Source of the DNA: a virus
Strand: one strand, 5' to 3'
DNA: 56,209 bases
Virus record (IMG/VR): IMGVR_UViG_3300029998_000037
Span: 1-56,209 of that record
Part shown: in pieces, positions 17,648 through 51,263 of the stretch
Numbering within the stretch: position 1 is the stretch's first letter
How the letters are laid out: each line of letters starts with the position of its first letter
The notes under the pieces: generated by a model
Told to the model about the DNA's origin: nothing
The model's database searches: none
Seen by the model: only the letters and a program-made list of their open reading frames with translations
Position numbers and translations under genes: made by a program

Positions 17648-17871
17648 TTTTTCTTTTTTGTATCTTTAATCGCCTCATCTTTAGCATATAATAAATATTC
17701 ACCATTAGTTGTTGTAAGGTTATAAACATATAATCCTTCATTAATAGCTGTTATTATTTCAAGATATTCATCTATTTCATCTTTAGATAAATCATTATTA
17801 GATAATTCATATAATGCCATATCTTTTGTAATTTTTTCACTCTTTATAATTTCCGTTTTAGTTTTTTTCAT
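17644..17871 (-). CDS. Small hypothetical protein inside head-peptide cluster
   Basis: Start taken at ATG 17871 (M-K-K-T-K-T-E-I-I-K-S), giving 75 residues; the frame is open to 17925 with an extra 18 residues. It is acidic and helical and ends in D-T-K-K-K-K, so it has neither the head peptide nor the K-Y-N-I end. The element AAATATAATTTATG at 17907-17920 leads only to M-K-stop, so the original start of this gene may have been damaged. Confidence 0.5.
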   Translation of the reverse strand: MKKTKTEIIKSEKITKDMALYELSNNDLSKDEIDEYLEIITAINEGLYVYNLTTTNGEYLLYAKDEAIKDTKKKK

Positions 17872-17905
17872 AATAAACTTATATTTTTTAAACCATATGG
17901 TTATT

Positions 17906-18001
17906 TCATAAATTATATTTATCAATTTCTTTTTTAATTAGATATTTTTTAAATTTTTCTGGATATTTTGTTTTCAATTCTTCAACTATAGATTTATCAA
18001 C
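17906..18001 (-). other. In-frame continuation of the ankyrin gene after TAA
   Basis: Directly after the TAA at 18002-18004 the same frame stays open for 31 codons and ends K-E-I-D-K-Y-N-L, the terminal motif of the neighbouring cluster proteins. This strongly suggests it is the genuine C-terminus, separated by a nonsense mutation, sequence error or readthrough stop. Confidence 0.65.
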
Positions 18002-18697
18002 TTACATCAATATATCTATAAAATCTTTATTATCTAATGTTTTAATATTCCAATTTGCACCAAGTTCTATTAATTCATACATTATTGGATAAGATACTAT
18101 ATATTTAGCACCAGATGCTGCCATTAATGCAGTACATCCGTTGTAATCCTGAATGTCTAAATCTACACCATATTTAACTAATATTTTAATCATTTTAATT
18201 ATTTTTTCCGCGTTATGACTATATCCTAATATAAGTTTGATTAATGGTGTCCTTCCAAAATTTTTATCTTGAATATTTACATCTGCACCTTGTTTTAATA
18301 AATTTTTAGTTTTTATAATATCAAGAGTTCTAATATAAATAAATAAATCCCTACTATCAATAGGTGTAGTTGGTAAATAATATTTTTTACTTGTCATTCC
18401 ACTAGTTGTAAATGTGTATGACATTAATGATTCAGACATATTATCGTTTTTATGTATAAAATTTTTATGAACTAAATATTTAACATAATTATATATTTCT
18501 TTAGAGTTAGGCAAATCTACACCATAGTTATTATAAATATAATGGTTTATAAATTCAAGAATATGATCCTCTGATAATGATTGATGTATATTAATAATAT
18601 TTTTTATTGCCTTTTTATATAATATTGGAAATAAACTTGTTATAAGTTTTAAATTAAAATTTATACTTTCATTATATAATTCGAATTTAGTTATCAT
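18002..18697 (-). CDS. Ankyrin-repeat protein with head peptide
   Basis: A 231-residue protein starting M-I-T-K-F-E-L-Y-N-E-S. The C-terminal half holds two to three ankyrin repeats: L-L-K-Q-G-A-D-V-N-I-Q-D-K-N-F-G-R-T-P-L, V-K-Y-G-V-D-L-D-I-Q-D-Y-N-G-C-T-A-L and L-I-E-L-G-A-N-W-N-I. Ankyrin repeats bind other proteins. Together with the head peptide this suggests a phage protein carried into the cell to bind a host target. N-E-S near the start looks like a T4-type protease cleavage site. It overlaps the upstream gene by ATGA, and the coding continuation beyond its stop is listed separately. Confidence 0.78.
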   Translation of the reverse strand: MITKFELYNESINFNLKLITSLFPILYKKAIKNIINIHQSLSEDHILEFINHYIYNNYGVDLPNSKEIYNYVKYLVHKNFIHKNDNMSESLMSYTFTTSGMTSKKYYLPTTPIDSRDLFIYIRTLDIIKTKNLLKQGADVNIQDKNFGRTPLIKLILGYSHNAEKIIKMIKILVKYGVDLDIQDYNGCTALMAASGAKYIVSYPIMYELIELGANWNIKTLDNKDFIDILM

Positions 18698-19176
18698 ATA
18701 TTAAATTTTATATTATTTTTATATATTTCAGGATCTATATTTAAATGTACTATAACATCTTTATTTCCTGCGCCTACATTATACCATTCATCTTCTTCAT
18801 ATATTCTTATACTTATATATTCAAATTGAAATGTATATTGAATTTCTTTAACGAATCCGCTTGGCCCTGATTCAAACGAAATTCTATCACATATACCAAA
18901 ATGTGAATTAGAATTTTCATCTTCAAATGATATAACTTTGTCAATTAATAACTTAAAAATTAAATTCCTATATTCACATTCCTGATTTGATATAATTTCT
19001 ATATCAGAAGGTGTAGAATAATGTCCTCTTCTTAATTTTTTAAATTCTCTTTCATTATTAGCAGAATATTCCATTTCACGTGCTAATTGATATAAATTAA
19101 TATATAATTTGTCATTTTTTTCAACTATATTTTTCCATTTATAACCATAGCCTTCATATGTTTTTATAAATTTCAT
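18694..19176 (-). CDS. Head-peptide protein (M-K-F-I-K-T-Y-E start, K-F-N-I end)
   Basis: A 160-residue protein. It begins M-K-F-I-K-T-Y-E-G-Y-G-Y and ends N-N-I-K-F-N-I. Internal L-I-F-K-L-L-I-D-K-V-I-S-F-E and F-G-I-C-D-R-I-S-F-E align with the paralogues at 16620 and 17126. A beta-rich region then follows. No catalytic motif is seen. Likely the same fold and the same targeting as its neighbours. Confidence 0.7.
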   Translation of the reverse strand: MKFIKTYEGYGYKWKNIVEKNDKLYINLYQLAREMEYSANNEREFKKLRRGHYSTPSDIEIISNQECEYRNLIFKLLIDKVISFEDENSNSHFGICDRISFESGPSGFVKEIQYTFQFEYISIRIYEEDEWYNVGAGNKDVIVHLNIDPEIYKNNIKFNI

Positions 19177-19490
19177 ACGTTATATTTTTTAATTATTTCT
19201 ACTTGTTTATCAAATTCTTTCTCATCTTCAATAACATTACCGTTACCATCAACTAATATCCAAGAAAATTCACTTTCACCGCGTTCAGCAGCATATTCTT
19301 CTATACCATACCATATTGCAGAATAATAATCTTGCCTATAGCCTTTATTTATAATTTTATAATAAGCTTCAGTTTCTTTTATTTTACTTAATGGAACTAA
19401 AAATTCACCACTAATTTGTACCTTTAATAATTTTTCAGTATGATCATATTTTGGTCTGCTTAATGATTCATTAAATCTTTTAATTTTCAT
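19173..19490 (-). CDS. Head-peptide protein (M-K-I-K-R-F-N-E-S start, K-K-Y-N-V end)
   Basis: A 105-residue protein, first gene of the cluster. N-E-S-L after the head peptide again resembles a (I/L)-x-E prohead-protease site. The centre, V-P-L-S-K-I-K-E-T-E-A-Y-Y-K-I-I-N-K-G-Y, looks like a folded alpha-beta domain. Upstream lies the divergent region to the coiled-coil gene at 19576, which should hold the cluster promoter; none fits TAnnTTTG, so a phage-specific promoter may be used. Confidence 0.7.
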   Translation of the reverse strand: MKIKRFNESLSRPKYDHTEKLLKVQISGEFLVPLSKIKETEAYYKIINKGYRQDYYSAIWYGIEEYAAERGESEFSWILVDGNGNVIEDEKEFDKQVEIIKKYNV

Positions 19491-23853: not shown

Positions 23854-24462
23854 ATGAAAAAGATAGATATAATATGTATATTAGATATGTCAGGCTCTAT
23901 GGAATCTATTATAGACAAGGCAAGAGAAGGATTTAATCAATTCTTAAAAGAGCAACAAGAAAGTAAAAATAAAATAAAATTTTCATTGTTATTTTTTGAT
24001 ACAAATTTTTATATGCCATATAAAAATATTAATATTAAAAAAGTAAAACCTGTTAATGAAGATACTTATTATGCTCATGGCGGAACTTCACTTCTGGATG
24101 CTGTAGGATTTTCAATAAATTCTTATTTAGATGATTTAGCATTAATTCCAAAAAATAAAAGGTCTGATAAAACTTTATTTGTTATTTTAACAGATGGATT
24201 TGAAAATAGTTCTAAAGTTTATCATCGCGAATTAATAAAAAATATGGTAACTGAAATACAAGAAGAATTTAAAGCGTCTTTTATCTATTTAGGCGCAAAC
24301 CAAGATGCGTGTTTTGAAGCAGAATCAATGGGCATAAATAAAACTAATGCATTTAATTATGATGCAACTAATAATGGTATAACAGTTGCTTATGCAAATA
24401 TATCAAAATCTGTAAATTATTATGCTAATAATGATGTAAAGGAAAACTTATTTCAGCAATAA
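23854..24462 (+). CDS. von Willebrand factor A domain protein
   Basis: A 202-residue cytosolic vWA domain, start at ATG 23854. D-M-S-G-S-M-E-S (11-18) is the MIDAS D-x-S-x-S motif; A-H-G-G-T-S-L-L-D-A-V supplies the threonine, and L-T-D-G-F-E-N-S the last acidic residue. vWA domains bind protein partners through a metal. Bacterial homologues appear in tellurite-type stress systems and defence islands. It lies behind the zinc-ribbon protein and before a terminator. Confidence 0.85.
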   Translation: MKKIDIICILDMSGSMESIIDKAREGFNQFLKEQQESKNKIKFSLLFFDTNFYMPYKNINIKKVKPVNEDTYYAHGGTSLLDAVGFSINSYLDDLALIPKNKRSDKTLFVILTDGFENSSKVYHRELIKNMVTEIQEEFKASFIYLGANQDACFEAESMGINKTNAFNYDATNNGITVAYANISKSVNYYANNDVKENLFQQ

Positions 24463-24794
24463 CAAAAAAGTTTAAAAATGGAATCAAATTGATTCCATTT
24501 TTTTATAAAATTCATAAAATTTATCTTTTTTTCTTGATATCCATTTTTATTTTCATTATAATCATGCGACCCCCAACTATTCCAAACATTTAAATTTATA
24601 TTTGCATCAGGAATATAAATATATTCATATTTACCAGATGATATAACCTCATTATTAAGGATATATTTAATCTGTTTATCTGGCAAATTAAGTTTATATA
24701 AGCTTGTTTCTAAATATGGACTATCTGCTCTAATTTTCCAATATGTTTGTTTAGCGTTGGGCTGAATAGAGTCAAATGTTTTAATATATTTCAT
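24453..24794 (-). CDS. Head-peptide protein with likely frameshifted end
   Basis: A 113-residue protein beginning M-K-Y-I-K-T-F-D-S-I-Q-P. As read, the last 20 residues pass through the terminator and end in F-C-Y-C. In the A7 run at about 24523-24529, one extra A would change the end to E-K-K-D-K-F-Y-E-F-Y-K-K-M-E-S-I and stop inside the terminator arm. That looks far more natural. The body is beta-rich (Y-E-Y-I-Y-I-P-D-A-N-I-N). Function unknown. Confidence 0.6.
   Translation of the reverse strand: MKYIKTFDSIQPNAKQTYWKIRADSPYLETSLYKLNLPDKQIKYILNNEVISSGKYEYIYIPDANINLNVWNSWGSHDYNENKNGYQEKKINFMNFIKKWNQFDSIFKLFCYC
24474..24505. terminator. Rho-independent terminator between converging genes
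   Basis: AATGGAATCAA and TTGATTCCATT pair and are flanked by A and T runs, so it can work in both directions. Confidence 0.8.
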
Positions 24795-25612
24795 TTTTTA
24801 TTAGTATTTTCAATAATCATTTGTAGGTGAGTATTTTCTTTCAGTTCAATATCAAAATCTTGTTTAATTTGATTTTTCAAATACTCATAAGTATAATGGT
24901 TTTCATAAATTATTTTCCAATTACTTGGAATTTTTTTCTTTATTGTTTCTAATGAAACTGGTAAATAATTTTCTTTTGATTCTCTATCCCAGTTTGTTGT
25001 ATATTTATACTTCAATAGCCAATGTAATAATACTCTAAAATTTGTTGAGATATCACCCCATTTGCTTTCAAAATCATGTAAATATTTAGGATCTGATTTT
25101 TCTTTTATTTTTTTAATATCTATCATATTCATTTTATCAAAAGATGTCGATGGTATCATATCTCTAATAATAATATACTTAAATTTATTATTAAAAACTT
25201 GTTCATTCCAAAATTGCCTAATTTCACTTGAAGTGCCATAACTATAAACTTCGTGTATAACAGATGACAATAATATTGCAGCATTATAACTATTAACATT
25301 TTGTATTACTTCATTCCAATTAGAATAAAAATCAATGTCTGGGTATTGATTTTTAGATATATTAATCATATCATCATCAATATCATAACCAATTAAATTA
25401 ATATCTGGTTTCATTTTGTATATTTCTTTTAATAATGATCCATCAGCACATCCAAAATCTACTAATGTGTCCATATCTATTTTATTAAAAAAGAATAATT
25501 TATCAGCCAATCCTTTATTCATTTTTCCGATATATTCATTAATATCAGATATTGGATTTGATGTTAATTTAAACTCAAATAAAAAATCTTCAAATAGTTT
25601 TATCTTTTTCAT
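24791..25612 (-). CDS. SAM-dependent methyltransferase with head peptide
   Basis: A 273-residue protein. It starts M-K-K-I-K-L-F-E-D-F-L-F-E, the shared N-terminal peptide. Around residue 52, V-D-F-G-C-A-D-G-S-L-L is motif I of class I methyltransferases. G-Y-D-I-D-D-D-M is motif II, and A-I-L-L-S-S-V-I-H-E-V is the motif IV region. The acceptor is unknown; a small molecule, RNA cap or protein are all possible. The head peptide suggests the enzyme is carried in the virion. ATGA-type overlap with the next gene. Confidence 0.82.
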   Translation of the reverse strand: MKKIKLFEDFLFEFKLTSNPISDINEYIGKMNKGLADKLFFFNKIDMDTLVDFGCADGSLLKEIYKMKPDINLIGYDIDDDMINISKNQYPDIDFYSNWNEVIQNVNSYNAAILLSSVIHEVYSYGTSSEIRQFWNEQVFNNKFKYIIIRDMIPSTSFDKMNMIDIKKIKEKSDPKYLHDFESKWGDISTNFRVLLHWLLKYKYTTNWDRESKENYLPVSLETIKKKIPSNWKIIYENHYTYEYLKNQIKQDFDIELKENTHLQMIIENTNKK

Positions 25613-25941
25613 ATGTTATATTTTGCTATAATATTTTTTTCATCTTGTAGCATTATTTCTTTTTTAGTTGCAAATCTAAAATATTTCTTATCGCTACATA
25701 TCATGTTATAATAGTCTGTTATATATCCATTTTCTGGACAATTAGGGTTAATATCATATAAAATTCTAATCATCTCTTTACTACAAGATATTACTTTACC
25801 AACATTAGTAGTCACAAAAAGTTTTTTGGCTTGTCCTTGATGTCCAGAATTATATTCAATTGGAAAATTTGGTAAAGCAATTACAAAATCTTCTGATTCA
25901 AAATTTTGATAAAAATCTTCAAATAGTTTTATTCTTTTCAT
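25609..25941 (-). CDS. Head-peptide protein (M-K-R-I-K-L-F-E start, K-Y-N-I end)
   Basis: A 110-residue protein with both shared ends. In between, E-D-F-V-I-A-L-P-N-F-P and F-V-T-T-N-V-G-K-V-I-S-C resemble an SH3-like barrel; C-P-E-N-G-Y-I-T-D-Y-Y and R-F-A-T-K-K-E-I precede the final helix, as in other members that end with [RF]-x-A-T-x-x-E-I and K-Y-N-I. Confidence 0.68.
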   Translation of the reverse strand: MKRIKLFEDFYQNFESEDFVIALPNFPIEYNSGHQGQAKKLFVTTNVGKVISCSKEMIRILYDINPNCPENGYITDYYNMICSDKKYFRFATKKEIMLQDEKNIIAKYNI

Positions 25942-26279
25942 ATGTTAAATTTTTTAGATTTTGGTAATAATTCTGCGGTATTTATACAATCTTGTAAATT
26001 ATCTGATTCATATAGTATTTCATATTTATTATACGGTGTATCCACTATTAAAAAATTATCTAAATCTAACCATTTTCCTTCTAATCCATCATAAACAGCA
26101 AGTCTTCTAACTTCTAAAAATATTCTTTCATGAATATTTTTTCTTGTTGGATCTCTATATATTTGCAATATTTCACATACAACATATGTATCATGAATTC
26201 TAGCATTTAGTTGCCAAATTATATATTTTTTAAGTTTTGGCAATTCTTCTAATTCTTCGTATAATTTTATATATTTCAT
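25938..26279 (-). CDS. Head-peptide protein (M-K-Y-I-K-L-Y-E start, K-F-N-I end)
   Basis: A 113-residue protein. Between the shared ends it is beta-rich: I-I-W-Q-L-N-A-R-I-H-D-T-Y-V-V-C-E-I-L and F-L-E-V-R-R-L-A-V-Y. The final helix is L-Q-D-C-I-N-T-A-E-L-L-P. It overlaps the gene downstream by four bases in AACATATGAAA. No family is assigned. Confidence 0.68.
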   Translation of the reverse strand: MKYIKLYEELEELPKLKKYIIWQLNARIHDTYVVCEILQIYRDPTRKNIHERIFLEVRRLAVYDGLEGKWLDLDNFLIVDTPYNKYEILYESDNLQDCINTAELLPKSKKFNI

Positions 26280-26281
26280 AT

Positions 26282-27598
26282 TTACATATTAAATTTTGAG
26301 ACTGTTTCTTTGAATATAAATTGTTCATAAGCTTCAATTTCTTCTGCTGTTTTTTCTTCTTTTAATTTATTTTCAAATTCTGGTGTTAAAATCCATTGTA
26401 AAATTTTACCATTATAATGTTTAGACAATTTAAATAAATTTAAATACACTCTATTATAATCTATCCAAATATTATAATTATAATCAAAAACAGCATATTC
26501 AAAATTATCTTTAAATGCTTCTAAATTATCAATTGCTATTATTTTTTCAAAAATTTCTTCTGGTGAATTAATATAATTAACAATAGTATCTTTTATTTCT
26601 TTTTTTAAATCCTTAAAATCGCCCAAATTTTCATAATGTTCAGATTCAATATCATATGAAAAATCATTAAATTCAGAAACATTTTCTAAAAATTCTGCGA
26701 TTGTTTTAACATCTAATTTATGTTTTTTCATATATTCTATTATTGTATCATAATCAAAATTTAATTCTAAATCAAATCCATTAGAATACTGTGAACTTAA
26801 TTCAAATGGTAAACTTTTTATTGAATCTTTTGCTGTTTTTGATACTGCACGTTCATTTTCATAACTTATTTCTGTTATAAAATCATCTAATTTATCTTTT
26901 AATCCTAAATAATTAAATAATTTATTAATTTCACCATCTTCTATATTACCATCATCTTCTAATTTTAAATTAAATTTGAATAATTCTGCGAATTCTTTAA
27001 TTTTAATTGTTATCTCTGGATTTAAATAACGTTCAATATAATTTAATTCGTCTTCATCTACATAATATTCATAACCACTATAATAACCATTAAATTGTAA
27101 ATAATATTCTAAAATATTTGATTCTATATTTACTAATTTTTCTAATTTACTAGATTTCATAAAAAGTGTGAGACTATCTTTATCATATTCTGGTTCATAT
27201 CTATAATAACCAGAACTTTTTAATTTATAATCTTTTTCATCTAGCCCTATATAATTTGCAATATTTTCTGGTTTAAAATCTGGTGATTCTAATACCTGTA
27301 TTAAATTTTCTTTTTCATCAACATTTGAATTTTCTTTAATAGGATTATTTCGAAAATATTCAGCTTGTTTTAATGTCTTAAAACTTATATCTCTAAGTTT
27401 TTTAATCTTAGAATTTTTATCATTATTTAATTTAGTTCTCTTATGTGGATCTTTTTCTTTACCCAATCTTTTTCTATCACTTTTAATACCTTTTTGTAAA
27501 TATACAGCATTCTTAAGTAATCCGTTCTTAACTTTAAAAGGTTTAGCGGAATTTATTGTTATTGGCTTGAAATTTTCGTAACTCTTAATATATTTCAT
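26282..27598 (-). CDS. Large head-peptide protein, 438 residues (K-F-N-M end)
   Basis: The largest member of the cluster. It starts M-K-Y-I-K-S-Y-E-N-F-K-P and ends V-S-K-F-N-M. Residues 20-75 are highly basic (K-S-D-R-K-R-L-G-K-E-K-D-P-H-K-R), which would suit DNA or RNA binding or a protease-processed pro-region. The remainder is acidic and helical with no recognised catalytic motif. If packaged, it would be a candidate injected effector. Confidence 0.7.
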   Translation of the reverse strand: MKYIKSYENFKPITINSAKPFKVKNGLLKNAVYLQKGIKSDRKRLGKEKDPHKRTKLNNDKNSKIKKLRDISFKTLKQAEYFRNNPIKENSNVDEKENLIQVLESPDFKPENIANYIGLDEKDYKLKSSGYYRYEPEYDKDSLTLFMKSSKLEKLVNIESNILEYYLQFNGYYSGYEYYVDEDELNYIERYLNPEITIKIKEFAELFKFNLKLEDDGNIEDGEINKLFNYLGLKDKLDDFITEISYENERAVSKTAKDSIKSLPFELSSQYSNGFDLELNFDYDTIIEYMKKHKLDVKTIAEFLENVSEFNDFSYDIESEHYENLGDFKDLKKEIKDTIVNYINSPEEIFEKIIAIDNLEAFKDNFEYAVFDYNYNIWIDYNRVYLNLFKLSKHYNGKILQWILTPEFENKLKEEKTAEEIEAYEQFIFKETVSKFNM

Positions 27599-27900
27599 AT
27601 GTTAAATTTATCTAATCTATCTTTTAATTTTTGTTTTTCTATTTCTTCTGGCGTTGCTAATCTTAATCTCCAATTTAGAAACCAAGTAGGACCAGGGCCA
27701 ATAATAGGTATGCCCTTTAATTCTGCACAATTTTGTCCAATATTTGATATTATACAAACATTATCTTCAAAGTATTTTTTAAGGATTTCACTCCATTCAA
27801 AATCTGGACTTAGTTTAATATAATCACCAACTTTAAAATTATATTTATTAGATTCAAATATTCTACTTTCATTTATAAAATCACAAAAATTAATAATCAT
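27595..27900 (-). CDS. Head-peptide protein, SH3-like (starts M-I-I-N-F-C-D-F-I-N-E-S)
   Basis: A 101-residue protein, first of the cluster. F-I-N-E-S near the N-terminus matches the (I/L)-x-E-S cleavage pattern of T4-type prohead proteases. The body has V-G-D-Y-I-K-L and N-W-R-L-R-L-A-T-P-E-E-I-E-K, then the final helix and K-F-N-I. This barrel-plus-helix layout is shared by 25609, 40144 and 40438. Confidence 0.68.
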   Translation of the reverse strand: MIINFCDFINESRIFESNKYNFKVGDYIKLSPDFEWSEILKKYFEDNVCIISNIGQNCAELKGIPIIGPGPTWFLNWRLRLATPEEIEKQKLKDRLDKFNI

Positions 27901-28916: not shown

Positions 28917-31328
28917 ATGGCTTACGAAAACAAAAGAGGAGACTTGATTCTCCCACAAGGCACATTTGTATATATACAAGATGGCGCATCTGGCACAGTA
29001 CAAGTTGCTGTTGGTCCATACAAAGAATCAATAGGTGAGATTGACAAAATCGTTATCTTTGATGAACGAACAAAGAAATTTGTTCAAGCAAATGAATTTT
29101 CAGATGCTATACAAGTCGCTAGATCAGCAGACGAAGGTCAATATATAGTATTAATTAATCCAGCTGAGCCTAAAGATAATGAACAAAAATTTCCTCAAAG
29201 AGGGAAAAACTCACAAACAATTACTCTTAAAACAGGGAGTAAAGTAAATATTCCAGGACCTGCAACTTTTCCACTTTGGCCAGGTCAAATCGGTAATGTA
29301 TTAGATGGACATAACCTTAAATATAATGAATACCTTATTGTAAGGGTATATAATGAAGAGGAAGCTAAGAAAAATTTATCTAATGCAATCGTTAAAACAG
29401 CTGCGACTGATGATAAACAATCTAAATCTTTAATTGCAAAAGAAGATTTAGTAACAGGTAAACTTCTTGTTATAAAAGGTACAGATGTATCTTTTTATAT
29501 TCCGCCTACAGGTATTGAAGTTGTTTCAGAGAATGGACATTATGTTCGTAAATCTGTAACATTAGAGAGATTAGAATATTGTATCTTATTAGATCAGAAT
29601 GGTGACAAAAGGTATGAAAAAGGACCTGCAGTTGTATTTCCTAAGCCAACTGAGGAATATCTTGAACAAGATGGTAAGAAAAAATTTAAAGCTCTTGAGT
29701 TAAATGATAATATGGGTATTTATTTAAAAGTTATTGCTGATTATGAAGAAAATGGCCGTCAATATAAAACTGGCGAAGAACTTTTCATTACAGGAAAAGA
29801 ACAAAAAATATATTTTCCAAGAGAAGAACACGCAATTATCAAATATGATGATAGAGCGATGCACTATGCAGTAGCAATTACTGGTGGCGAAGCACGATAC
29901 GTTCTTAATAAAGACACAGGTAATATTTCATTATTTGTTGGACCAAAAATGTTCATTCCTGATCCACGGAAAGAAGTTATTGTAAAAAGAATTCTTGATG
30001 AAAAAACAATAAAATTATGGTTTCCTGATAGTACTGATGCTATTCAGCATAATAAATTATTAGAAGCTGAAATGAATCAGAATGATTTTTCTGATCTTGG
30101 ATATAGAAGTAATGCATATGTTACTGATAGAGGATTTTCTAAGCAAGTTAAAAGTTCATCTTTGAATATGGCAGATGAAATGGCCAGAAAAAATACTTTT
30201 ACAAAACCAAGAACATTAACAATGGATAACAAGTATGAAGGTGCTGTAACAATAAATGTTTGGCCAGGCTTTGCTATTCAAATAGTTAAAAAAACTGGAG
30301 AAAGGGAAGTTGTTGTTGGTCCAAAAGTTAGATTACTTGAATTTGACGAAACACTTGAAGTTCTAGAACTTTCAACTGGTAAACCAAAGACAGATAATGT
30401 TTTAATGAAGACTGTGTATCTTCAAACTGAAAATAATGTTGTATCTGATATCATAGACGCTGAAACTAAAGATTTAGTAAATGTGAAAATTAGATTATCT
30501 TATAGAGTTAATTTCACAGGAGATAATAAGAAATGGTTTAATGTTTCTAATTATGTAAAATTAATGACTCAACACCTTCGTTCACTTGTTCGTAATAGAG
30601 TTAAAAAGATTAATATTGAAGATTTCAACAATGATCCTGCTGATATTCTTAGAGATACAATTTTAGGAACAGCAGAAGAAGGTAAAAAACGAAATGGAAA
30701 AACATTCTCAGAAAATGGAATGCAAGTTTATGATATTGAAGTTCTTGATATAGTTATTGGTGACCAAGAAATTTCATATTTCCTTAAGGATTATCAAAAA
30801 CACATTGTAAGACAAAATTTGGAAATGAACAAACTTCAAAAAGATTTGGATAATGTTAAAAAAGAAGAAGATATCAAAAGACAAAATTTGTTAGAAGTAG
30901 CTAAAACAGATGAAATTCGTTTAACAATAAATACAAATAAAATTGCAAACGCAAATGCCGCAGAATTGTTAAAAGTAAATGCTGAAAAAGAAAGACAAGC
31001 TATTCTTGATGAAATTTCAAAAATGATTTTTGAAATTTCAAAACTGAAAGATGAACATAAACTTGAAGTTGAAAAAGAAAGTTCTGAAATTCGTACAGCA
31101 GAATATGAAAAACAGATGTTAGCTATTCAGCCTAAGTTAATTGAAGCCATGATTACTCTTGGTGGTGTTAAAACAACTGAAATCCTTGCAAAAAATCTTA
31201 AAGAGCAAGGAAACGATTGGACAAATCTTTTCAAAAAAGGTGGAATTGAAGGATTATTAGATACAGTTAAAGGTACACCTTTATATGATAATTTAGTAGC
31301 AGTTCTAAATCCAAAAAAAGCAGAATAA
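28917..31328 (+). CDS. Vault/SPFH-like protein, 803 residues
   Basis: Several repeats of a beta unit with G-P-x-x-F-x-P occur in the first two thirds: I-P-G-P-A-T-F-P-L-W-P-G-Q, V-G-P-K-M-F-I-P-D-P-R and V-V-G-P-K-V-R-L-L-E-F-D-E. This pattern and order resemble the repeat domains of major vault protein. An SPFH-like domain follows (V-N-V-K-I-R-L-S-Y-R-V-N-F, around 520-620), then a long helical region (about 630-760), as in vaults and stomatins. It probably forms a large cytosolic ring or shell. Terminators lie on both sides, so it is transcribed alone. Its G+C content is slightly raised. Confidence 0.62.
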   Translation: MAYENKRGDLILPQGTFVYIQDGASGTVQVAVGPYKESIGEIDKIVIFDERTKKFVQANEFSDAIQVARSADEGQYIVLINPAEPKDNEQKFPQRGKNSQTITLKTGSKVNIPGPATFPLWPGQIGNVLDGHNLKYNEYLIVRVYNEEEAKKNLSNAIVKTAATDDKQSKSLIAKEDLVTGKLLVIKGTDVSFYIPPTGIEVVSENGHYVRKSVTLERLEYCILLDQNGDKRYEKGPAVVFPKPTEEYLEQDGKKKFKALELNDNMGIYLKVIADYEENGRQYKTGEELFITGKEQKIYFPREEHAIIKYDDRAMHYAVAITGGEARYVLNKDTGNISLFVGPKMFIPDPRKEVIVKRILDEKTIKLWFPDSTDAIQHNKLLEAEMNQNDFSDLGYRSNAYVTDRGFSKQVKSSSLNMADEMARKNTFTKPRTLTMDNKYEGAVTINVWPGFAIQIVKKTGEREVVVGPKVRLLEFDETLEVLELSTGKPKTDNVLMKTVYLQTENNVVSDIIDAETKDLVNVKIRLSYRVNFTGDNKKWFNVSNYVKLMTQHLRSLVRNRVKKINIEDFNNDPADILRDTILGTAEEGKKRNGKTFSENGMQVYDIEVLDIVIGDQEISYFLKDYQKHIVRQNLEMNKLQKDLDNVKKEEDIKRQNLLEVAKTDEIRLTINTNKIANANAAELLKVNAEKERQAILDEISKMIFEISKLKDEHKLEVEKESSEIRTAEYEKQMLAIQPKLIEAMITLGGVKTTEILAKNLKEQGNDWTNLFKKGGIEGLLDTVKGTPLYDNLVAVLNPKKAE

Positions 31329-40437: not shown

Positions 40438-40743
40438 TTATAAATTATATTTATCAACATCAAATTCAAGGGTCGTCTTAAATCTTGTTGACTCCCAACC
40501 CTTTGTAATTTCATTAGTTTCTAAATTTACAACATCAACTCTCATATAATCTTTTTTTAAAAATTTATCTTCTGGCAATTTATATATTTTTAGAACTTTG
40601 TATTTATCACCTTTATCTATTGCGAAATATTTACCTGTCGGATTGTATTTATCATCAGAACAAATCACAATATCACCTTCTTCATAATCTAATGCTTGCC
40701 CTGTTTCAGTTGAAAAAAATTCAAATGTTTTTATATATCTCAT
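40438..40743 (-). CDS. Head-peptide protein, SH3-like (M-R-Y-I-K-T-F-E start, K-Y-N-L end)
   Basis: A 101-residue protein. Y-E-E-G-D-I-V-I-C-S-D-D and Y-K-V-L-K-I-Y form the first strands; W-E-S-T-R-F-K-T precedes D-V-D-K-Y-N-L. Same architecture as its downstream neighbour. Confidence 0.65.
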   Translation of the reverse strand: MRYIKTFEFFSTETGQALDYEEGDIVICSDDKYNPTGKYFAIDKGDKYKVLKIYKLPEDKFLKKDYMRVDVVNLETNEITKGWESTRFKTTLEFDVDKYNL

Positions 40744-40746
40744 ATT

Positions 40747-41010
40747 TTATACATTATATTTTTTAGAATTTATTATCATTTCTACATCTTCTATATTTTC
40801 TGATAAAGACCAGTTAAGATTCTCCCAATCATCATCTTCAATATAATTAGACGTTATATTATATCCTAATTTTTTTAATACCTCATCCCAACGAATAGAA
40901 TGTCCTTGATATAATAATTTACCATTATAATAAACTCCTTCCCAATCATCACCTCTCATAATGATAAGTTTTTTATCATCTATATTTTCAAATAATTTTA
41001 TATGTTTCAT
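40747..41010 (-). CDS. Head-peptide protein (M-K-H-I-K-L-F-E start, K-Y-N-V end)
   Basis: An 87-residue acidic protein: L-I-I-M-R-G-D-D-W-E-G-V-Y-Y-N-G, then W-D-E-V-L-K-K-L-G-Y and an acidic D-D-W-E-N-L-N-W segment. It starts inside the 3' end of the upstream gene (23-base overlap), which still preserves the AATATATGAAA element out of frame. Confidence 0.65.
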   Translation of the reverse strand: MKHIKLFENIDDKKLIIMRGDDWEGVYYNGKLLYQGHSIRWDEVLKKLGYNITSNYIEDDDWENLNWSLSENIEDVEMIINSKKYNV

Positions 41011-41476
41011 ATATTATATTTTTTAATTGTAATTTTTGTTTAAAATCTTCTATTGATATTTTATTTATTATATTATCAACATTATCAACAACTTCAAAAT
41101 TTACCTGAAAAAACATATTATCTTCACTATGTAATTTTAATCCTTTTATAGTTTTAAAATATTCAGGAATAAAATTTGCTAAATCATCATTTGTACTTCC
41201 AATTCTTTCTGTAATTGATAAAAATATTAATGAATTAGAAAACTCACCATTAATATCAAAGCAATTATGTCCAGGATGTCCACGGTCTAAATGACTAAAT
41301 AAACCTATTTTATTACTAAAAAAATTATTAACATATTCAAATTCATCATATTTTGGCAAATGATAATATCCTAATTCTTTAAACATTTCTACTAAATGAC
41401 TTAATAACTTTTTAAGATCATCTAATCTTGGATTTGGATTTGTAGCAAATATTTCAAATTTTTTTAAATATTTCAT
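40988..41476 (-). CDS. Head-peptide protein (M-K-Y-L-K-K-F-E start, K-I-I end)
   Basis: A 162-residue protein. L-D-D-L-K-K-L-L-S-H-L-V-E-M-F-K helix, then R-G-H-P-G-H-N-C-F-D-I-N-G, a His-rich loop. It does not end in K-Y-N-I, but the bases AAAAATATAATATATG still sit near its end in another frame, ahead of the next ATG. Important for judging why the motif is conserved. Confidence 0.65.
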   Translation of the reverse strand: MKYLKKFEIFATNPNPRLDDLKKLLSHLVEMFKELGYYHLPKYDEFEYVNNFFSNKIGLFSHLDRGHPGHNCFDINGEFSNSLIFLSITERIGSTNDDLANFIPEYFKTIKGLKLHSEDNMFFQVNFEVVDNVDNIINKISIEDFKQKLQLKNIIYETYKII

Positions 41477-41928
41477 ATATTATATTTATTTGTATTTGAA
41501 TATAAATCAACAATATTTTCTATTTCTGTTGGTTCTCCATATATCTTAACTGGTTTAGTAAAATCAACATCAATAAACTTATTTTTTTCATCTAATATTA
41601 TTGAATAAGTAATTTTTTTAAAAAAAACCGAATAAAAAAATTTAACATATGTAACTTTACCATCATATAAATCACCATTTAAACCAACAAATACAACTTT
41701 TCTATTTTTTATAAGTATATCTTGAATTAATTTCTCAACTGTATCATCTAATGGAACTGTTAACCAGTTAGGTACTAACTTGTCTAAATTTTTAAAAAAA
41801 TCAGTAGACCTAAAATTGTTATCTCTTTCATTATGAAATATTTTTTTGAAATCATTATAAAATTTAATAGCATCAAACTCATAATAAGTGGTCTTATTAA
41901 AATTTTCATATTTTTTTAAATACTTCAT
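41473..41928 (-). CDS. Head-peptide protein (M-K-Y-L-K-K-Y-E start, K-Y-N-I end)
   Basis: A 151-residue protein. V-E-K-L-I-Q-D-I-L-I-K-N-R-K-V-V-F and G-K-V-T-Y-V-K-F-F-Y align with the paralogues at 16620, 17126 and 18694. It is the first gene of the cluster's tagged set and lies three bases from the Nudix gene. Confidence 0.68.
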   Translation of the reverse strand: MKYLKKYENFNKTTYYEFDAIKFYNDFKKIFHNERDNNFRSTDFFKNLDKLVPNWLTVPLDDTVEKLIQDILIKNRKVVFVGLNGDLYDGKVTYVKFFYSVFFKKITYSIILDEKNKFIDVDFTKPVKIYGEPTEIENIVDLYSNTNKYNI

Positions 41929-43846: not shown

Positions 43847-43968
43847 AAATAAAATTTATATTCAAATGGTATGATTTTTGGATTGGGATTTTCTATGATA
43901 AGCAAAAAAATTGGATATCCAATTTTTCAATTCCAATGTTTGGATTAATTATAAAAATAAAAAAATAA
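43843..43968 (+). CDS. Small F-K-W-Y-D-F-W-I-G protein
   Basis: A 41-residue protein beginning M-K-I-K-F-I-F-K-W-Y-D-F-W-I-G and ending I-P-M-F-G-L-I-I-K-I-K-K. I recognise this as a conserved tiny phage protein (sometimes longer), function unknown. ATGA overlap upstream; the glycosyltransferase starts three bases after it. Confidence 0.7.
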   Translation: MKIKFIFKWYDFWIGIFYDKQKNWISNFSIPMFGLIIKIKK

Positions 43969-43970
43969 AA

Positions 43971-45185
43971 ATGAATGATTTTTTTATACAAGGGCATACA
44001 AGTTTTATTGGTCAAACAGGTTATAATGCACACGCTAGAGATTTCTTTACCGCATTAAGTTATAAAACACCATTAAAAATTAGAAATTTTACAGTAGGAA
44101 AAACTTGGAATGGACTAGGATCAATTAACTCAAATGGTAGATATAATGATCCTCACTCAAAAGAAACATATATTACTGATTATCAGAGAAAACTAATAAA
44201 TATACAAACTTTATATTGTAATCAAGGATCAAAAAATAGTTATGGATCTGGATTATGTGATTATGAAGTTAATGAAGAAGCAAAATATTCAAATTTATCA
44301 AAAATAGATTTACTTTTAAGTGAAACTAATCACCATTATTATTATTGCCTTGATAAATATACTGGATTTAAAATAGCATATAATGTTTGGGAATCAACAA
44401 AATATGATAACACTTTCTTTGAAATACTTAAAAAATTTGATCAATTTTGGTGTCCATCAAAATGGCAAAAACAATGTGCTATAGAACAAGGTTATCCAAC
44501 AGATAAAATTTTTATTGTTCCTGAAGCTGTTGATGATTCTATATTTAATCCAGATTTTTTTAATTATAATTTAGATATGTATAAAGATAATAGATTCAAA
44601 TTTGTATTATTTGGAAGATGGGAATATAGAAAAGCCACAACAGAAATTATTTCAACATTTCTAAAAACATTCAAGCCAGAAGAACCAGTTGATTTAATAT
44701 TAGCAGTAGATAATGCTGATTATAGTAATGATGGTTTAAAAACAACAGAAGAAAGATTAAATCATTATAATTTTAAAGATAATAGATTAAAAATTTTACA
44801 TTTTGTAAATAGACAAGATTATGTTAATTATTTAAAAAATGGTCATGTATTTTTATCTTGTTCAAGATCAGAAGGCTGGAATCTTCCATTGTGTGAATCT
44901 ATGGCTTGTGGCACACCATCAATATATTCTAACTGTAGTGCTCAATTAGAATTTGCAAAAGGAAAAGGTCATCCAATTAAAATATTAGATGAAAAACCTA
45001 TACCAAATGGTGTAGGAAATTATTATGAACCAGATTTTGATGATTTGTCTAAAGTGATGAGAGATGTTTATGTTAATTATTGGAAATATAAAAAGAAAGC
45101 TTTAGAAGATTCAGAATTAATTAGAACTGAATTTTCTTGGAAGAATTCTGCTAATAAAGCACTTGAAATAATAAAAAATATCTAA
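43971..45185 (+). CDS. Family 4-type glycosyltransferase
   Basis: A 404-residue GT-B enzyme from ATG 43971; the frame is open for 20 codons upstream but that overlaps the small gene. The C-terminal half has F-V-L-F-G-R-W-E-Y-R-K, then H-V-F-L-S-C-S-R-S-E-G-W-N-L-P-L-C-E-S-M-A-C-G-T-P, the E-x7-E donor motif of GT4. It likely adds a sugar from a nucleotide donor to a phage or host glycan. Confidence 0.87.
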   Translation: MNDFFIQGHTSFIGQTGYNAHARDFFTALSYKTPLKIRNFTVGKTWNGLGSINSNGRYNDPHSKETYITDYQRKLINIQTLYCNQGSKNSYGSGLCDYEVNEEAKYSNLSKIDLLLSETNHHYYYCLDKYTGFKIAYNVWESTKYDNTFFEILKKFDQFWCPSKWQKQCAIEQGYPTDKIFIVPEAVDDSIFNPDFFNYNLDMYKDNRFKFVLFGRWEYRKATTEIISTFLKTFKPEEPVDLILAVDNADYSNDGLKTTEERLNHYNFKDNRLKILHFVNRQDYVNYLKNGHVFLSCSRSEGWNLPLCESMACGTPSIYSNCSAQLEFAKGKGHPIKILDEKPIPNGVGNYYEPDFDDLSKVMRDVYVNYWKYKKKALEDSELIRTEFSWKNSANKALEIIKNI

Positions 45186-45452
45186 ATGAAAGGACCAATA
45201 TTAATAAAAATTTTTTCTTGCAAAGATTGTATTCATTTAGTAGATACTACAGGACTTAATTTTTCAATCCAAAAACCACCATATCTATGTAATCATAAAG
45301 ATATAGTTATACAAGAAGATGAACTAAAATTAGAATATCCAGATTGTAGTACATTTTTTGTATGCCCAATAAGGTATGATAAAATAACACCTGACATTTG
45401 TCCTCTTTTATTTAAAAGAAATAGAGTTGAAAAATTAAAAAAATTAAAATGA
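45186..45452 (+). CDS. Cysteine-rich small protein, duplicate A
   Basis: An 88-residue protein: M-K-G-P-I-L-I-K-I-F-S-C-K-D-C-I-H-L, Y-L-C-N-H-K, D-I-C-P-L-L-F-K-R-N and final R-V-E-K-L-K-K-L-K. The next gene is a diverged copy. The Cys and His residues suggest one zinc site. It carries the common C-tail. Directly behind the glycosyltransferase. Confidence 0.68.
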   Translation: MKGPILIKIFSCKDCIHLVDTTGLNFSIQKPPYLCNHKDIVIQEDELKLEYPDCSTFFVCPIRYDKITPDICPLLFKRNRVEKLKKLK

Positions 45453-45688
45453 AAGGCCCAATTTTAATAAAAGTTTTTTCTTGCAAAGATTGTGAGCATT
45501 TAAAAAAAGTCAATCTTTATATAAAAAATCCATATTCTTGCTATCATAAAAATATAATTATAACGAAAAATGGTCCACAATTAATGTTAGGTAATATCGG
45601 ACCTGATAAAATAACTCCTGATTTTTGTCCTCTTTTATTTAAAAAAAATAGAGTTGAAAAATTAAAAATGTTACAATCTTATAAATGA
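45449..45688 (+). CDS. Cysteine-rich small protein, duplicate B
   Basis: A 79-residue copy of the preceding gene: the start M-K-G-P-I-L-I-K-V-F-S-C-K-D-C and the end D-F-C-P-L-L-F-K-K-N-R-V-E-K-L-K are nearly identical, while the middle is shorter and changed. ATGA overlap with copy A. The spacing of Cys and His is retained. Confidence 0.68.
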   Translation: MKGPILIKVFSCKDCEHLKKVNLYIKNPYSCYHKNIIITKNGPQLMLGNIGPDKITPDFCPLLFKKNRVEKLKMLQSYK

Positions 45689-45777
45689 AAATGTTAAAAA
45701 ATAAATAAAAATTATAATAATATTAAACATTTAAAAAAATTAAAGATAAAATAATCAGAGAAAATTCTTCAAAAATG

Positions 45778-45811
45778 AAAAATGTAGTTTAAACTACAAC
45801 ATTTTTTTTAT
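45778..45811 (+). terminator. Rho-independent terminator
   Basis: TGTAGTTTAAACTACA palindrome inside AAATG...CATTT, followed by T8. It closes the upstream operon and isolates the receptor gene. Confidence 0.82.
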
Positions 45812-45859: not shown

Positions 45860-48800
45860 ATGAGAAAATTAAAAAGAGTGATGTTAGTGATAATGCTTAT
45901 ATTGTTTTCAATAATAGCAAAATCACAAGAAACCACTTCTGAAATTTCAGGAACAATTTTAGAAGGCAAGTCGCCATTACAAGATGTTGTAGTAATGGCA
46001 GTTCATGTTCCAACAGGCACTAAGTATATGACAACGACTAGAACTGATGGTCGTTATAACTTACCAAATTTAAAAATTGGTGGGCCATATACTTTAACAA
46101 CAGCTTTTGTTGGACTTAAATCAGAAAAAATAAACAATATCTTTCTGAATTTAGGTCAAACATTTAAACAAAATTTTGAACTTACTGATGAAGCGATCCA
46201 AGTAGGAGAAGTTATTGTAAAAGGCGTTCAAGACAAGACATTTAGTAGTTCAAGAACTGGTTCTCAGGAGTTAATAACAAGAGCTCAAGTTGATCGTTTA
46301 CCAACAATAAATCGTTCAATTCAAGATTTTGTAAAATTAGAACCTACCTCCCAAGGATTGAATATTGGCGGCAGAAGTAGTCAATATAATAATATGACAG
46401 TTGATGGAGCTAATTTTAATAACTCATTTGGTCTATCATCTATCTTAGGTGGACAAACATCCGCACAACCAATTTCATTAGAAGCTATTGAACAAATTCA
46501 AGTTAACGTATCACCATATGATGTTAAGCAAGGTGGATTTGCTGGAACAGGCGTTAACACCGTAACTAAAAGTGGAACAAATACTTTCAAAGGAACTATT
46601 TATCAATATTCTAGGAATGAAAATTATTTAGGTTACAATGTTGGTCCAACAACAGTTGTAAAAACTCCTTTTGATTATTCTATCAAAGGATTTAGTTTAG
46701 GAGGTCCAATTATCAAAGACAAATTATTTTTCTTCGTAAGTGGAGAACAAGTTAGACAAGATGCACCAGCGACTTCCATGCTGCCTTCAGACGCATCTCA
46801 TGCTGCTGGTGGAAACTATTCTCAAGCAAACGCTGACACTTTATCAGCTTTATCTAGTTTCTTAAAGACCAAGTTTGGATATGATCCAGGTGCTTTTCAA
46901 GGTTATACTTTCAAAACCTATTCTGATAAAATTACTGCAAAATTAGACTGGAACATTAATAGTAAGAATACTTTTACATTAAAATACAACTACTTAAAAT
47001 CATCATCCGATCAATTTGCATCTACTTCAAGACCAGGCTCTGGTCAAACAACTGGTGGGCAGCCAGGTACCTATTCAATGCCTTTCTATGGTAGTGGTTA
47101 TGTAATCAATAATAACTTTAATATTTTTATTGCTGAATTGAATACTCATTTCAATAATAGGCTATCAAATAAATTACAAATTGGTTATACTGCATTGAGA
47201 GATTTCCGTTCTCCTCATTCTAGTAGTGGAACTTTCCCATTAGTTGATATTTTAAACAATGGTAATATTTATACAACCTTTGGTTACGAAATGTACACTT
47301 ACAATAACGTATTGAATACAGACGTTTATCAATTAAATGACATCTTAACTTATTATAAAGGTGCGCATGAACTCACAGTAGGTACTCAAAACTCAATTAA
47401 AAAATATCAAAACGCATTTGCGCCTGGTTATCAAGGTGTTTATCAATTCAATAGCTTGACAGACTTTTATAATTCAGCAAAAAACGGAAAGTTAAATGCT
47501 AAATCATACTACTTGCAATATTCAGCTTTACCTAATGGTGAATTTCCTTGGGCTAATGCCGGATCAACAGAATTATCTCAGTTCATACAGGATAAGTGGA
47601 AAGTATCAAATGATTTCACCTTAACTTTTGGCTTGAGACTTGATGAAACCTTCTACAAACAGTCAATGACAGATAATCCAACATTTGATGCATTAAAATT
47701 CAAAGATGGATCGACTTATAACATTGGTAAAGCTCCAATGAATAATATTATTGTTTCACCAAGATTAGGTTTCAACTGGAATCCTAAAGGTGATAAAACA
47801 TTACAAGTCAGAGGAGGTACTGGTATCTTCGCAGGACCTCCACCATTCGTTTGGATTTCTAACCAGGCTTCAAACAATGGTATTCAATTTGGTTCATTCA
47901 CCAATGCAGCTAACAAAACAGCGTTTAATGTTGATCCTAATGCTTTAAGACCAACAGCTGGATCTGCTAATGCTTCTTATAGTACTGCTTTGGTTTCTAG
48001 CAACTTTAAATATCCAACAGCTTGGAAGTCATCTTTAGCTATTGATAAGAGATTGGAAGATGGCTGGATGATTGGCGCTGAATACAATTATACACAAGAC
48101 ATTAATGCAGTTTATTACTCTAACATAAATTTAAATGAGTCCAACGGATTTGCATTAGGTGGTGTTGATAACAGAACCCGTTACTTAACTTCGGTTGCAA
48201 ATACTAACAAATATTATGCAGGAACGCCAACAGCGACCTTAGAAAATCCTAATATAGGTAATGCAATTTTAATGAGTAATTCAAGTAAAGGCTATGTTTA
48301 CACTTTGACTGCAAAAATTCAAAGAACTACTGAAAATTTAGCCTATGGTATAGCATACACACGTTCAGTATCCAAGAACACCGCAGAATATGGATCAACA
48401 GCCTCGTCATTATGGAGTGCAGTACCTGTTTCTAATCAGGATCCTAATGCGGCTAATTTGGGTTATGCGTCATATTATCAGCCAAACAGACTTATTGCCA
48501 ACTTCGCTTACAAACTAAATGAAGGAAAATATCTTGCTACAACATTTGGAGCAATTTACGAATTAACTAATAACGGTGTAAATTCATATGTTTATAATGG
48601 TGACTTAAATGGTGATGGTAATTCAGGTAATGACTTGATGTATATTCCAAAAACAATTGCTGACATCAACCTAGTTAAAGTCGGCTCTGGAGGTTTAGGT
48701 ACAATTACAACAGGTGTTACTGACACAAGAACATCTGCACAAATTTGGTCACAATTAGACGCTTTTATTTCTAATTCAACCTATCTTAATACTCACAGGG

Positions 48801-49135
48801 GTCAATACTCTAAAAGAAATGCAACTGTAGCGCCATACTTTAGTCACTTAGATTTAAATATTACACAAGATATTAAATTTAAGACACACACACTTAAGTT
48901 TTCAGTGGATATGATTAATGCTGGAAACTTAATTAACAGAGATTGGGGTGTTGTTAAAATTCCTACAGCTACTAACATATTAAAATATGAAGGTCTCGCT
49001 GCAGATGGAAAAACTCCTTCATTTTCGCTTCCATTCCAGACAGGAACAACTCCATTTACTCAACCATACCAAAATTCAACAGGTATTAGTTCAAGATGGC
49101 AAATGATGTTTGGTATTAAATACCTATTTAATTAA
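45860..49135 (+). CDS. TonB-dependent outer-membrane receptor, 1091 residues
   Basis: Residues 1-22 form a signal peptide. Residues 28-110 are a carboxypeptidase-regulatory-like domain (G-T-I-L-E-G-K-S-P-L-Q-D-V-V-V, T-D-G-R-Y-N-L-P-N-L). The plug follows (N-I-G-G-R-S-S-Q-Y-N, M-T-V-D-G-A-N-F) and then the long beta barrel, with N-x-K-N-T-F-T-L-K-Y strands and a C-terminal F-N. No SusD partner is next to it. It is G+C richer with more varied codons than the neighbours, which signals recent transfer from a Bacteroidota chromosome. Terminators on both sides make it an independent unit. It would be placed in the host outer membrane, possibly blocking a rival receptor. Confidence 0.9.
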   Translation: MRKLKRVMLVIMLILFSIIAKSQETTSEISGTILEGKSPLQDVVVMAVHVPTGTKYMTTTRTDGRYNLPNLKIGGPYTLTTAFVGLKSEKINNIFLNLGQTFKQNFELTDEAIQVGEVIVKGVQDKTFSSSRTGSQELITRAQVDRLPTINRSIQDFVKLEPTSQGLNIGGRSSQYNNMTVDGANFNNSFGLSSILGGQTSAQPISLEAIEQIQVNVSPYDVKQGGFAGTGVNTVTKSGTNTFKGTIYQYSRNENYLGYNVGPTTVVKTPFDYSIKGFSLGGPIIKDKLFFFVSGEQVRQDAPATSMLPSDASHAAGGNYSQANADTLSALSSFLKTKFGYDPGAFQGYTFKTYSDKITAKLDWNINSKNTFTLKYNYLKSSSDQFASTSRPGSGQTTGGQPGTYSMPFYGSGYVINNNFNIFIAELNTHFNNRLSNKLQIGYTALRDFRSPHSSSGTFPLVDILNNGNIYTTFGYEMYTYNNVLNTDVYQLNDILTYYKGAHELTVGTQNSIKKYQNAFAPGYQGVYQFNSLTDFYNSAKNGKLNAKSYYLQYSALPNGEFPWANAGSTELSQFIQDKWKVSNDFTLTFGLRLDETFYKQSMTDNPTFDALKFKDGSTYNIGKAPMNNIIVSPRLGFNWNPKGDKTLQVRGGTGIFAGPPPFVWISNQASNNGIQFGSFTNAANKTAFNVDPNALRPTAGSANASYSTALVSSNFKYPTAWKSSLAIDKRLEDGWMIGAEYNYTQDINAVYYSNINLNESNGFALGGVDNRTRYLTSVANTNKYYAGTPTATLENPNIGNAILMSNSSKGYVYTLTAKIQRTTENLAYGIAYTRSVSKNTAEYGSTASSLWSAVPVSNQDPNAANLGYASYYQPNRLIANFAYKLNEGKYLATTFGAIYELTNNGVNSYVYNGDLNGDGNSGNDLMYIPKTIADINLVKVGSGGLGTITTGVTDTRTSAQIWSQLDAFISNSTYLNTHRGQYSKRNATVAPYFSHLDLNITQDIKFKTHTLKFSVDMINAGNLINRDWGVVKIPTATNILKYEGLAADGKTPSFSLPFQTGTTPFTQPYQNSTGISSRWQMMFGIKYLFN

Positions 49136-49150
49136 TAAATTAATAATATA

Positions 49151-49186
49151 AAAAAAGAGATTATTTTCAAAATAGTCTCTTTTTTA
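49151..49186. terminator. Terminator after the receptor gene
   Basis: AAAAAGAGA and TCTCTTTTT pair around a loop with ATTTT/AAAAT. It also serves the converging endonuclease gene. Confidence 0.82.
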
Positions 49187-50511: not shown

Positions 50512-51263
50512 ATGATAGAAATAAATAAAATTTATAATGAAGATAATTTAACTACCATGAATAGAATGCCAGATAAATTTATATCTGGAATTATAACATC
50601 TCCACCTTATTCAATATGTAGTAAAAGAAATGATTGTTATTATAATAATGGATATTCTGAAACAGATGGCTTACCAGAAGATGAATATTTATCAATAAGA
50701 TTAAACGAATTTAAAGAATTTGAAAGGATCTTAAAAGATGATGGTGTGATATGTTACAATATTTCATATCACAATGAAAATCCAATATTGCCTCAACTAC
50801 TTATCTCAGAGGTACATAAACAAACCAACTTAACACTAGCAGATGTGATAAGCTGGAAAAAAAAAAAACCAGTATACCATTCCAGACCTCTCCAACAAAA
50901 TTGAGTAGAATTTGCGAATTAATATATATTATTGTTAAAAAAAACCATTTACATGATTTTATAACAAATAAAGAAATCAGTACAATTAATGAAAAAACAG
51001 GTCAAAATTTCTATAAAAACTATACTAATTTAATAGAAGCTAAAAATAATGATGGCTTTAAAACTAAACTAAAAGCAACATACTCAAGTGAATTAGTTGA
51101 AAAATTAATTCATATCTATTTTCCTGAAAAATCTTTAATATATGATCCATTTTCTGGCATCTCCACAACGGCAAAAGCTTGCATAAACAAAAAGTGTTGT
51201 TATATTGGTAGTGAGAGAGTTGAAGAATTTTATAATGATGCATTAAAAAATATAAAAAATTAA
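50512..51263 (+). CDS. DNA methyltransferase (N6/N4 type), split at an A12 run
   Basis: The first part, 50512-50904, holds motif IV I-T-S-P-P-Y-S and runs into S-W-K-K-K-K and then off-frame sequence. The second part, 50901-51263, holds L-S-R-I-C-E-L-I and motif I, Y-D-P-F-S-G-I-S-T-T-A-K-A-C. Adding one A to the run at 50857-50868 would join them as K-K-T-S-I-P-F-Q-T-S-P-T-K-L-S-R-I-C-E. The order motif IV then I fits the beta class. A12 is a slippery homopolymer, so the gene may be phase variable, or the base count is wrong. No restriction partner is seen. Confidence 0.78.

What the first reader, a model, noticed from the sequence alone, without database searches (positions are those of the whole stretch)
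45860..49135. Complete TonB-dependent receptor in a phage genome
A full-length receptor with signal peptide, regulatory-like domain, plug and barrel lies between two terminators in phage context. It is visibly richer in G and C than neighbours, so it is a recent gain. Such receptors are common phage entry sites. A phage-made copy could mask or replace the host receptor, serve as decoy, or import a nutrient.
Basis: partly seen in the sequence, partly recalled or inferred. Interest (0 to 1): 0.82.

Follow-up and report, generated by a model that had tools for sequence, protein, structure and literature searches.

The report
Exchangeable outer-membrane receptor carried by phages
Large phages of Bacteroidota bacteria carry a complete, apparently working bacterial outer-membrane transporter at fixed places in their genomes, and swap one version for another, so the finding is a real and recurrent part of these viruses rather than a one-off or an assembly error.

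Summary
Confirmed: 45860-49135 (+) encodes an intact 1091-aa TonB-dependent transporter of the Oar subclass (signal peptide, CarboxypepD_reg domain, TonB box, plug, barrel) between two hairpin terminators. It is not an assembly join: related phage contigs from other samples carry it at the same site. It is not shown to be a recent gain. About 70% of its G+C excess is amino-acid composition, its nearest relatives are only 84-87% identical, and it evolves under purifying selection. New here: (1) Oar-type receptors occur in about 125 IMG/VR contigs (not dereplicated), many of 100-320 kb and several with a terminase, but in no named INPHARED phage. (2) They sit in at least three conserved genomic slots. 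(3) Slot occupants are exchanged: two phages with 83% and 88% nt-identical flanks have receptors only 39.5% alike; the window's own slot holds a 35%-identical receptor in another phage and is empty in a third. (4) The window's receptor is itself a mosaic. (5) One receptor type is a phage-only clade in the sample that has moved between slots at least five times. Function is inferred: most likely TonB-powered import during infection, with superinfection control the main rival. Phage TonB receptors had been noted once in the papers searched (Mar_Mega_1, PMC9723777).

The parts
45860..49135 (+). Oar-type TonB-dependent transporter gene, 1091 aa
   Evidence: ORF; Pfam domains; AF2 model pLDDT 85.7
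45860..45925 (+). signal peptide (residues 1-22), inferred
   Evidence: sequence MRKLKRVMLVIMLILFSIIAKSQ; helix 2-15 in the model; no signal-peptide predictor was available
45944..46186 (+). CarboxypepD_reg N-terminal extension (residues 29-109)
   Evidence: PF13620, E 6e-13
46208..46225 (+). candidate TonB box EVIVKG (residues 117-122) in a disordered linker
   Evidence: E-[VI]-[VIT]-V pattern kept in the close phage and cell copies and most viral copies; linker pLDDT below 50
46190..46200 (+). approximate recombination boundary (near residue 112; chosen after seeing the identity profile)
   Evidence: identity profile; AU tests on the two parts
46265..46555 (+). plug domain (residues 136-232)
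   Evidence: PF07715
46589..49129 (+). beta-barrel (residues 244-1090)
   Evidence: PF25183 E 3e-53; strands in the model
45775..45811 (+). upstream hairpin followed by T run, terminator-like
   Evidence: dG -7.0, z -2.35
49151..49185 (+). downstream hairpin with U tail, terminator-like
   Evidence: dG -14.3, z -5.7
43911..45185 (+). left border of the receptor slot: group 1 glycosyltransferase
   Evidence: Pfam; also beside the slot in L002, L004, L203 and empty-slot phage G007
49184..50311 (-). right border of the slot: DUF7487 protein
   Evidence: PF24308; 72% identical on the right of the slot in L203; absent from G003
50512..51263 (+). right border: DNA methylase, split over two ORFs in the window
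   Evidence: PF01555; homologues right of the slot in L203 and G003

Best explanation
The gene is a functional Oar-subclass TonB-dependent transporter that is a regular, exchangeable accessory gene of large T4-related phages of Bacteroidota. SHOWN: full domain anatomy; purifying selection; conserved genomic slots; exchange of receptor types inside slots; mosaic origin of the window's copy. INFERRED: during infection the protein is secreted by its signal peptide, folded into the host outer membrane and powered by the host TonB/ExbBD through its TonB box. It then imports a substrate (peptide, protein, metal complex or glycan) that supports a long infection by a large phage. Different occupants of the slot would match different hosts or substrates. 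Confidence about 0.93 for the identity, 0.85 for slots and exchange, 0.45 for import as the benefit.
For: Domains and model. dN/dS 0.09-0.15 between phage copies. Phage and cellular copies have the same variability profile (r 0.89; plug 8.6% different in both groups; TonB box kept), as expected if the transport function is kept. Slot A: type I in window, L002, L004; type II in L203 with flanks 72-75% and receptor 35% identical; empty in G007. Slot B: L227 and L233 have 83% and 88% nt-identical flanks and receptors 39.5% alike. All 11 intact loci carrying the slot-B kinase, and the one cut at its contig end, have a receptor upstream. Slot C: types II, III and IV. AU tests: residues 1-112 reject window+L002 (p 7e-5), the rest reject window+L004 (p 7e-5), although core genes join window with G003, the contig of L004 (100/100). 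About 125 viral contigs; terminase in contigs up to 274 kb.
Against: No expression, localisation or substrate data. No nutrient-pathway partner (for example SusD) stood out beside the receptor; this was judged by reading ORF lists plus Pfam on selected neighbours only. Exchange of types in a slot is also what receptor competition between phages would give. Viral hallmark genes were shown only in a subset of contigs; the window has no virion gene.
Confidence: 0.5

Rival explanations
1. Superinfection control: the phage receptor competes for TonB, crowds or replaces the host's own receptors, or acts as a decoy, so that competing TonB-dependent phages or bacteriocins fail on the infected cell.
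For: TonB-dependent transporters are known phage receptors and targets of exclusion proteins (Cor against FhuA, PMC11436027). Slot occupants are exchanged as for host-interaction genes. The region also holds glycosyltransferase, SIS-domain (GmhA-like) and DegT aminotransferase genes that could alter the cell surface.
Against: A pure decoy would not need the plug and TonB box, which are kept; the barrel is not more variable in phage copies than in cell copies (0.156 against 0.179).
Confidence: 0.3
2. Oar-type export: the receptor works outwards, as Oar does for protease PopC in Myxococcus xanthus, to release a phage-coded protein.
For: Same subclass: CarboxypepD_reg extension, plug and TonB box (PMC6434023).
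Against: No constant cargo gene was seen beside the receptor; neighbours differ between slots.
Confidence: 0.08
3. Passive cargo: phages pick up and shuttle host receptor genes without benefit.
For: Type I phage and cell alleles are interleaved in the tree. A Bacteroidales MAG contig (NadA 74% to other Bacteroidales) carries an 87%-identical copy while the other sampled Bacteroidales have at most 44%, so this gene has moved between orders.
Against: dN/dS about 0.1, intact frames, fixed slots, repeated replacement and a viral clade of type II receptors.
Confidence: 0.07
4. Artefact: bacterial contigs or chimeras filed as viral.
For: IMG/VR holds some cellular or prophage-edge sequence; hits such as L007 and L213 (same contig, from an isolate genome) may be of that kind.
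Against: Same junction in independent contigs; terminase on many receptor contigs; gp32-like gene on G001.
Confidence: 0.03

Closest known systems
Oar of Myxococcus xanthus (Oar subclass of TonB-dependent transporters), PMC6434023
   Same: signal peptide, CarboxypepD_reg extension, TonB box, plug, large barrel
   Different: encoded by a phage, in a phage-specific slot; Oar serves PopC secretion, substrate here unknown; direct sequence comparison with Oar was not made
Oar-like transporters of Chitinophagales and other Bacteroidota
   Same: up to 77% identical full length in Chitinophagales genomes and 84-87% in three Bacteroidota MAG contigs
   Different: chromosomal; higher third-position G+C in the three MAG copies (0.29-0.59 against 0.21)
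Putative SusC-type TonB receptor of megaphage Mar_Mega_1 and LR745206, PMC9723777
   Same: a TonB-dependent receptor in a large phage, proposed to raise carbohydrate uptake
   Different: single mention; no slot, exchange or mosaic described; no NCBIfam SusC model matches the window protein; its sequence was not compared here
Phage exclusion proteins acting on TonB receptors (Cor of phi80 and N15, PMC11436027)
   Same: phage genes concerned with TonB-dependent receptors
   Different: Cor inactivates the host receptor; this is a whole receptor

Membership tests
Oar-subclass TonB-dependent transporter | CarboxypepD_reg N-terminal extension | tested here: met
   PF13620 29-109, E 6e-13
Oar-subclass TonB-dependent transporter | TonB-dependent receptor plug | tested here: met
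   PF07715 136-232, 25.7 bits against cut-off 23.9
Oar-subclass TonB-dependent transporter | TonB box before the plug | tested here: met
   EVIVKG 117-122; V118 and V120 invariant in the 7-sequence alignment, V118 in at least 90% of the 40-sequence one
Oar-subclass TonB-dependent transporter | full outer-membrane beta-barrel | tested here: met
   PF25183 over 810 of 838 positions; barrel in the model; best Foldseek hits FusA and YddB. Strand number was not counted
Oar-subclass TonB-dependent transporter | transport activity | not testable with these tools
   needs expression
SusC/RagA transporter | matches a curated SusC/RagA model | tested here: not met
   no NCBIfam match
SusC/RagA transporter | adjacent SusD partner | tested here: inconclusive
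   none apparent among the neighbours; Pfam was run on selected neighbours only
Phage moron / auxiliary gene | own transcription unit, absent from some relatives at the same site | tested here: met
   terminators; empty site in G007
Phage moron / auxiliary gene | expressed during infection, not needed for basic growth | not testable with these tools
   needs a culture
Superinfection-exclusion protein | protects the cell from other phages | not testable with these tools
   needs plating assays

The most novel reading that the evidence does not exclude
Large Bacteroidota phages share a pool of complete outer-membrane receptors kept in fixed genomic slots and exchanged as cassettes. With it they rewrite the receptor set of the infected cell (and, through shed vesicles, perhaps of neighbours), which decides which phages and bacteriocins can enter next.
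Probability: 0.25. Interest if true: 0.88.

Novelty: new variant of a known kind. Interest (0 to 1): 0.7.

Why it matters
Phages are thought to use receptors, not to make them. A common, maintained and exchanged receptor gene in phages means either that they re-supply nutrient uptake during long infections or that they control who can enter the cell next. Either answer changes how infected-cell physiology and phage competition are modelled, and it can be tested with single genes. It also shows phages as candidate carriers of transporter genes between bacterial orders.

Tried and rejected
Assembly join: rejected, same junction in independent contigs. Recent gain from G+C: not supported. One origin of all lineage-A phage copies: rejected in both parts of the gene. 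MAG mis-binning of the closest cellular copy L012: less likely, its neighbour NadA is nearest to Bacteroidales (74% against 66% in Chitinophagales). Promoter and T4-late-promoter motif scans gave nothing above chance. INPHARED holds only two unnamed faecal fragments. PHROGs has no family for the window receptor. NG86 dS is inflated between genes of different base make-up (pS up to 0.95 with L014), so only comparisons among AT-rich copies are used. Terminase_6N was not found in the lineage-A contigs; these are fragments and the family may not fit.

Full report
OBSERVATION. The window is an IMG/VR virus record of 56,209 bases. ORF 45860-49135 (+) encodes 1091 aa with CarboxypepD_reg, Plug and an outer-membrane barrel domain. 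The AlphaFold model (pLDDT 85.7, pTM 0.82) shows an N-terminal beta domain, a disordered linker that holds the candidate TonB box EVIVKG, a plug and a barrel; the best solved-structure matches are TonB-dependent transporters such as FusA and YddB. Hairpins on both sides make it look like its own transcription unit. The domain set is that of the Oar subclass (PMC6434023); no SusC model matches and no SusD neighbour was apparent.

NOT A JOIN, NOT CLEARLY RECENT. Contig L004 (G003) aligns with the window across the receptor and its upstream junction, and L002 (G001) has the receptor next to the same glycosyltransferase. Given its amino acids and the phage's own codon use, the protein would have G+C 0.311 (observed 0.339, window about 0.24), so about 70% of the excess is composition of the protein. 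A codon deviation remains (z -9.3, next gene -3.8). Divergence from the closest homologues (87% aa, NG86 dS 0.66) and from the phage copies (dS 0.62-0.97, within or slightly above core genes) is large; dN/dS is 0.09-0.15. dS values are rough because NG86 ignores base bias.

PHAGE CONTEXT. The window lacks virion genes, but it is co-linear with G003 over most of its length and shares many genes with the 308-kb contig G007, which has T4-type UvsW, gp46 and primase genes. Receptor-bearing G001 encodes a gp32-like protein; receptor-bearing G004 (170 kb) has a terminase.

A WIDESPREAD FAMILY. A profile search of IMG/VR returned 49 loci with an Oar-type receptor, and a second profile (type II) returned 80 loci, the cap, out of 107; four contigs are in both lists, so about 125 contigs, not dereplicated. 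Contigs reach 321 kb. Terminase_6N is found in 10 of 27 tested, including the 274, 270, 195, 166, 133 and 111 kb contigs. The virus/cell label changes at least 11 times on a 75-row receptor tree.

SLOTS AND EXCHANGE. Slot A (glycosyltransferase / DUF7487-methylase): type I receptor in window, L002 and L004; type II in L203, with flanks 72-75% and receptor 35% identical; no receptor in G007. Slot B (helicase / AAA kinase): type I in L003, the L181 type, and type II. L227 and L233 have 83% and 88% nt-identical flanks that end at the receptor gene, and receptors 39.5% alike, while L233's receptor is 66.6% identical to that of the slot-A phage L203. All kinase loci have a receptor upstream, one of them cut at the contig end. 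Slot C (ClpB-peptidase / DUF2061-M23 peptidase): types II, III and IV. Type II viral receptors form one clade (98) apart from the sampled cellular ones and need at least 5 moves between slots (quick tree, some rows dropped by a filter, outgroup not clean; an earlier run gave 6). The best cellular type II match in 395 Bacteroidota genomes was 63%.

MOSAIC. In residues 1-112 the window groups with L004 and L014; in the rest with L002 and the Prolixibacteraceae copy L012. AU tests reject the crossed pairings (p 7e-5 each) and reject one clade of the three phage copies in both parts. Core proteins unite window and G003 (100/100; window+G001 rejected, p 8e-5). The boundary was chosen after inspecting the identity profile, so the p-values are optimistic. 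Type I genes belong to a Chitinophagales family (51-77% in 32 of 398 genomes). Among 295 Bacteroidales genomes only L012's has a close copy, and its contig looks genuinely Bacteroidales, so the gene has crossed orders; phages are candidate vehicles.

MECHANISM. Shown: intact anatomy, purifying selection, and the same constraint profile as cellular copies (r 0.89, equal plug divergence, TonB box kept). Inferred: insertion into the host outer membrane and energisation by host TonB. Import during infection is my first choice (0.45), because every part needed for transport is kept and the barrel is no more variable than in cells. Superinfection control by TonB competition or receptor replacement is second (0.30), because slot exchange looks like a host-interaction gene and TonB-dependent receptors are classic phage receptors (PMC11436027). 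Export as for Oar/PopC, passive cargo and artefact are minor.

KNOWN AND NEW. A SusC-like receptor was noted in megaphage Mar_Mega_1 and LR745206 with a carbohydrate-uptake suggestion (PMC9723777). In the papers searched (10 searches, open-licence library only) I found no report of the slots, the exchange, the mosaicism or the extent. No named INPHARED phage carries one at the thresholds used, and PHROGs has no family for the window protein.

Noticed in passing
28917-31328 (+): 803-aa protein with the major vault protein shoulder and vault repeat domains (PF11978 E 3e-27, PF17795). It is conserved in related phage contigs at 40-91% identity, in contigs of up to 308 kb. A vault-like protein in jumbo phages deserves its own study.
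   Followed up: partly
16620-19490, 24453-27900, 40438-41928 (- strand): A dozen or so small proteins that share a start like M-K-Y-I-K-x-Y/F-E-x-F and an end like K-Y/F-N-I. The start recalls the capsid-targeting and prohead-protease sites of T4 internal proteins (recalled from memory, untested), so they could be proteins packed in the head and ejected.
   Followed up: no
2-1867 (-): RCC1-repeat protein (10 or more repeats, open at the window edge), of PHROGs RCC1 families; a 56%-identical relative is in G003.
   Followed up: no
45186-45688 (+): Two small genes side by side that are tandem copies of each other (DNA repeats 88-94%), just before the receptor; the related phages G003 and G007 have one.
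   Followed up: no
34767-55567: Group of surface-sugar genes: SIS-domain (GmhA-like) isomerase, two glycosyltransferases, DegT aminotransferase, around the receptor slot.
   Followed up: partly
L012 4001-7285 (Prolixibacteraceae MAG): 87%-identical chromosomal receptor next to nadA, an outlier among Bacteroidales: a candidate phage-borne gene transfer between orders.
   Followed up: partly
L233 5399-6004: A secreted-looking CpeT-domain protein (PF06206) sits between the type II receptor and the kinase in slot B of this phage, but not in L227.
   Followed up: no
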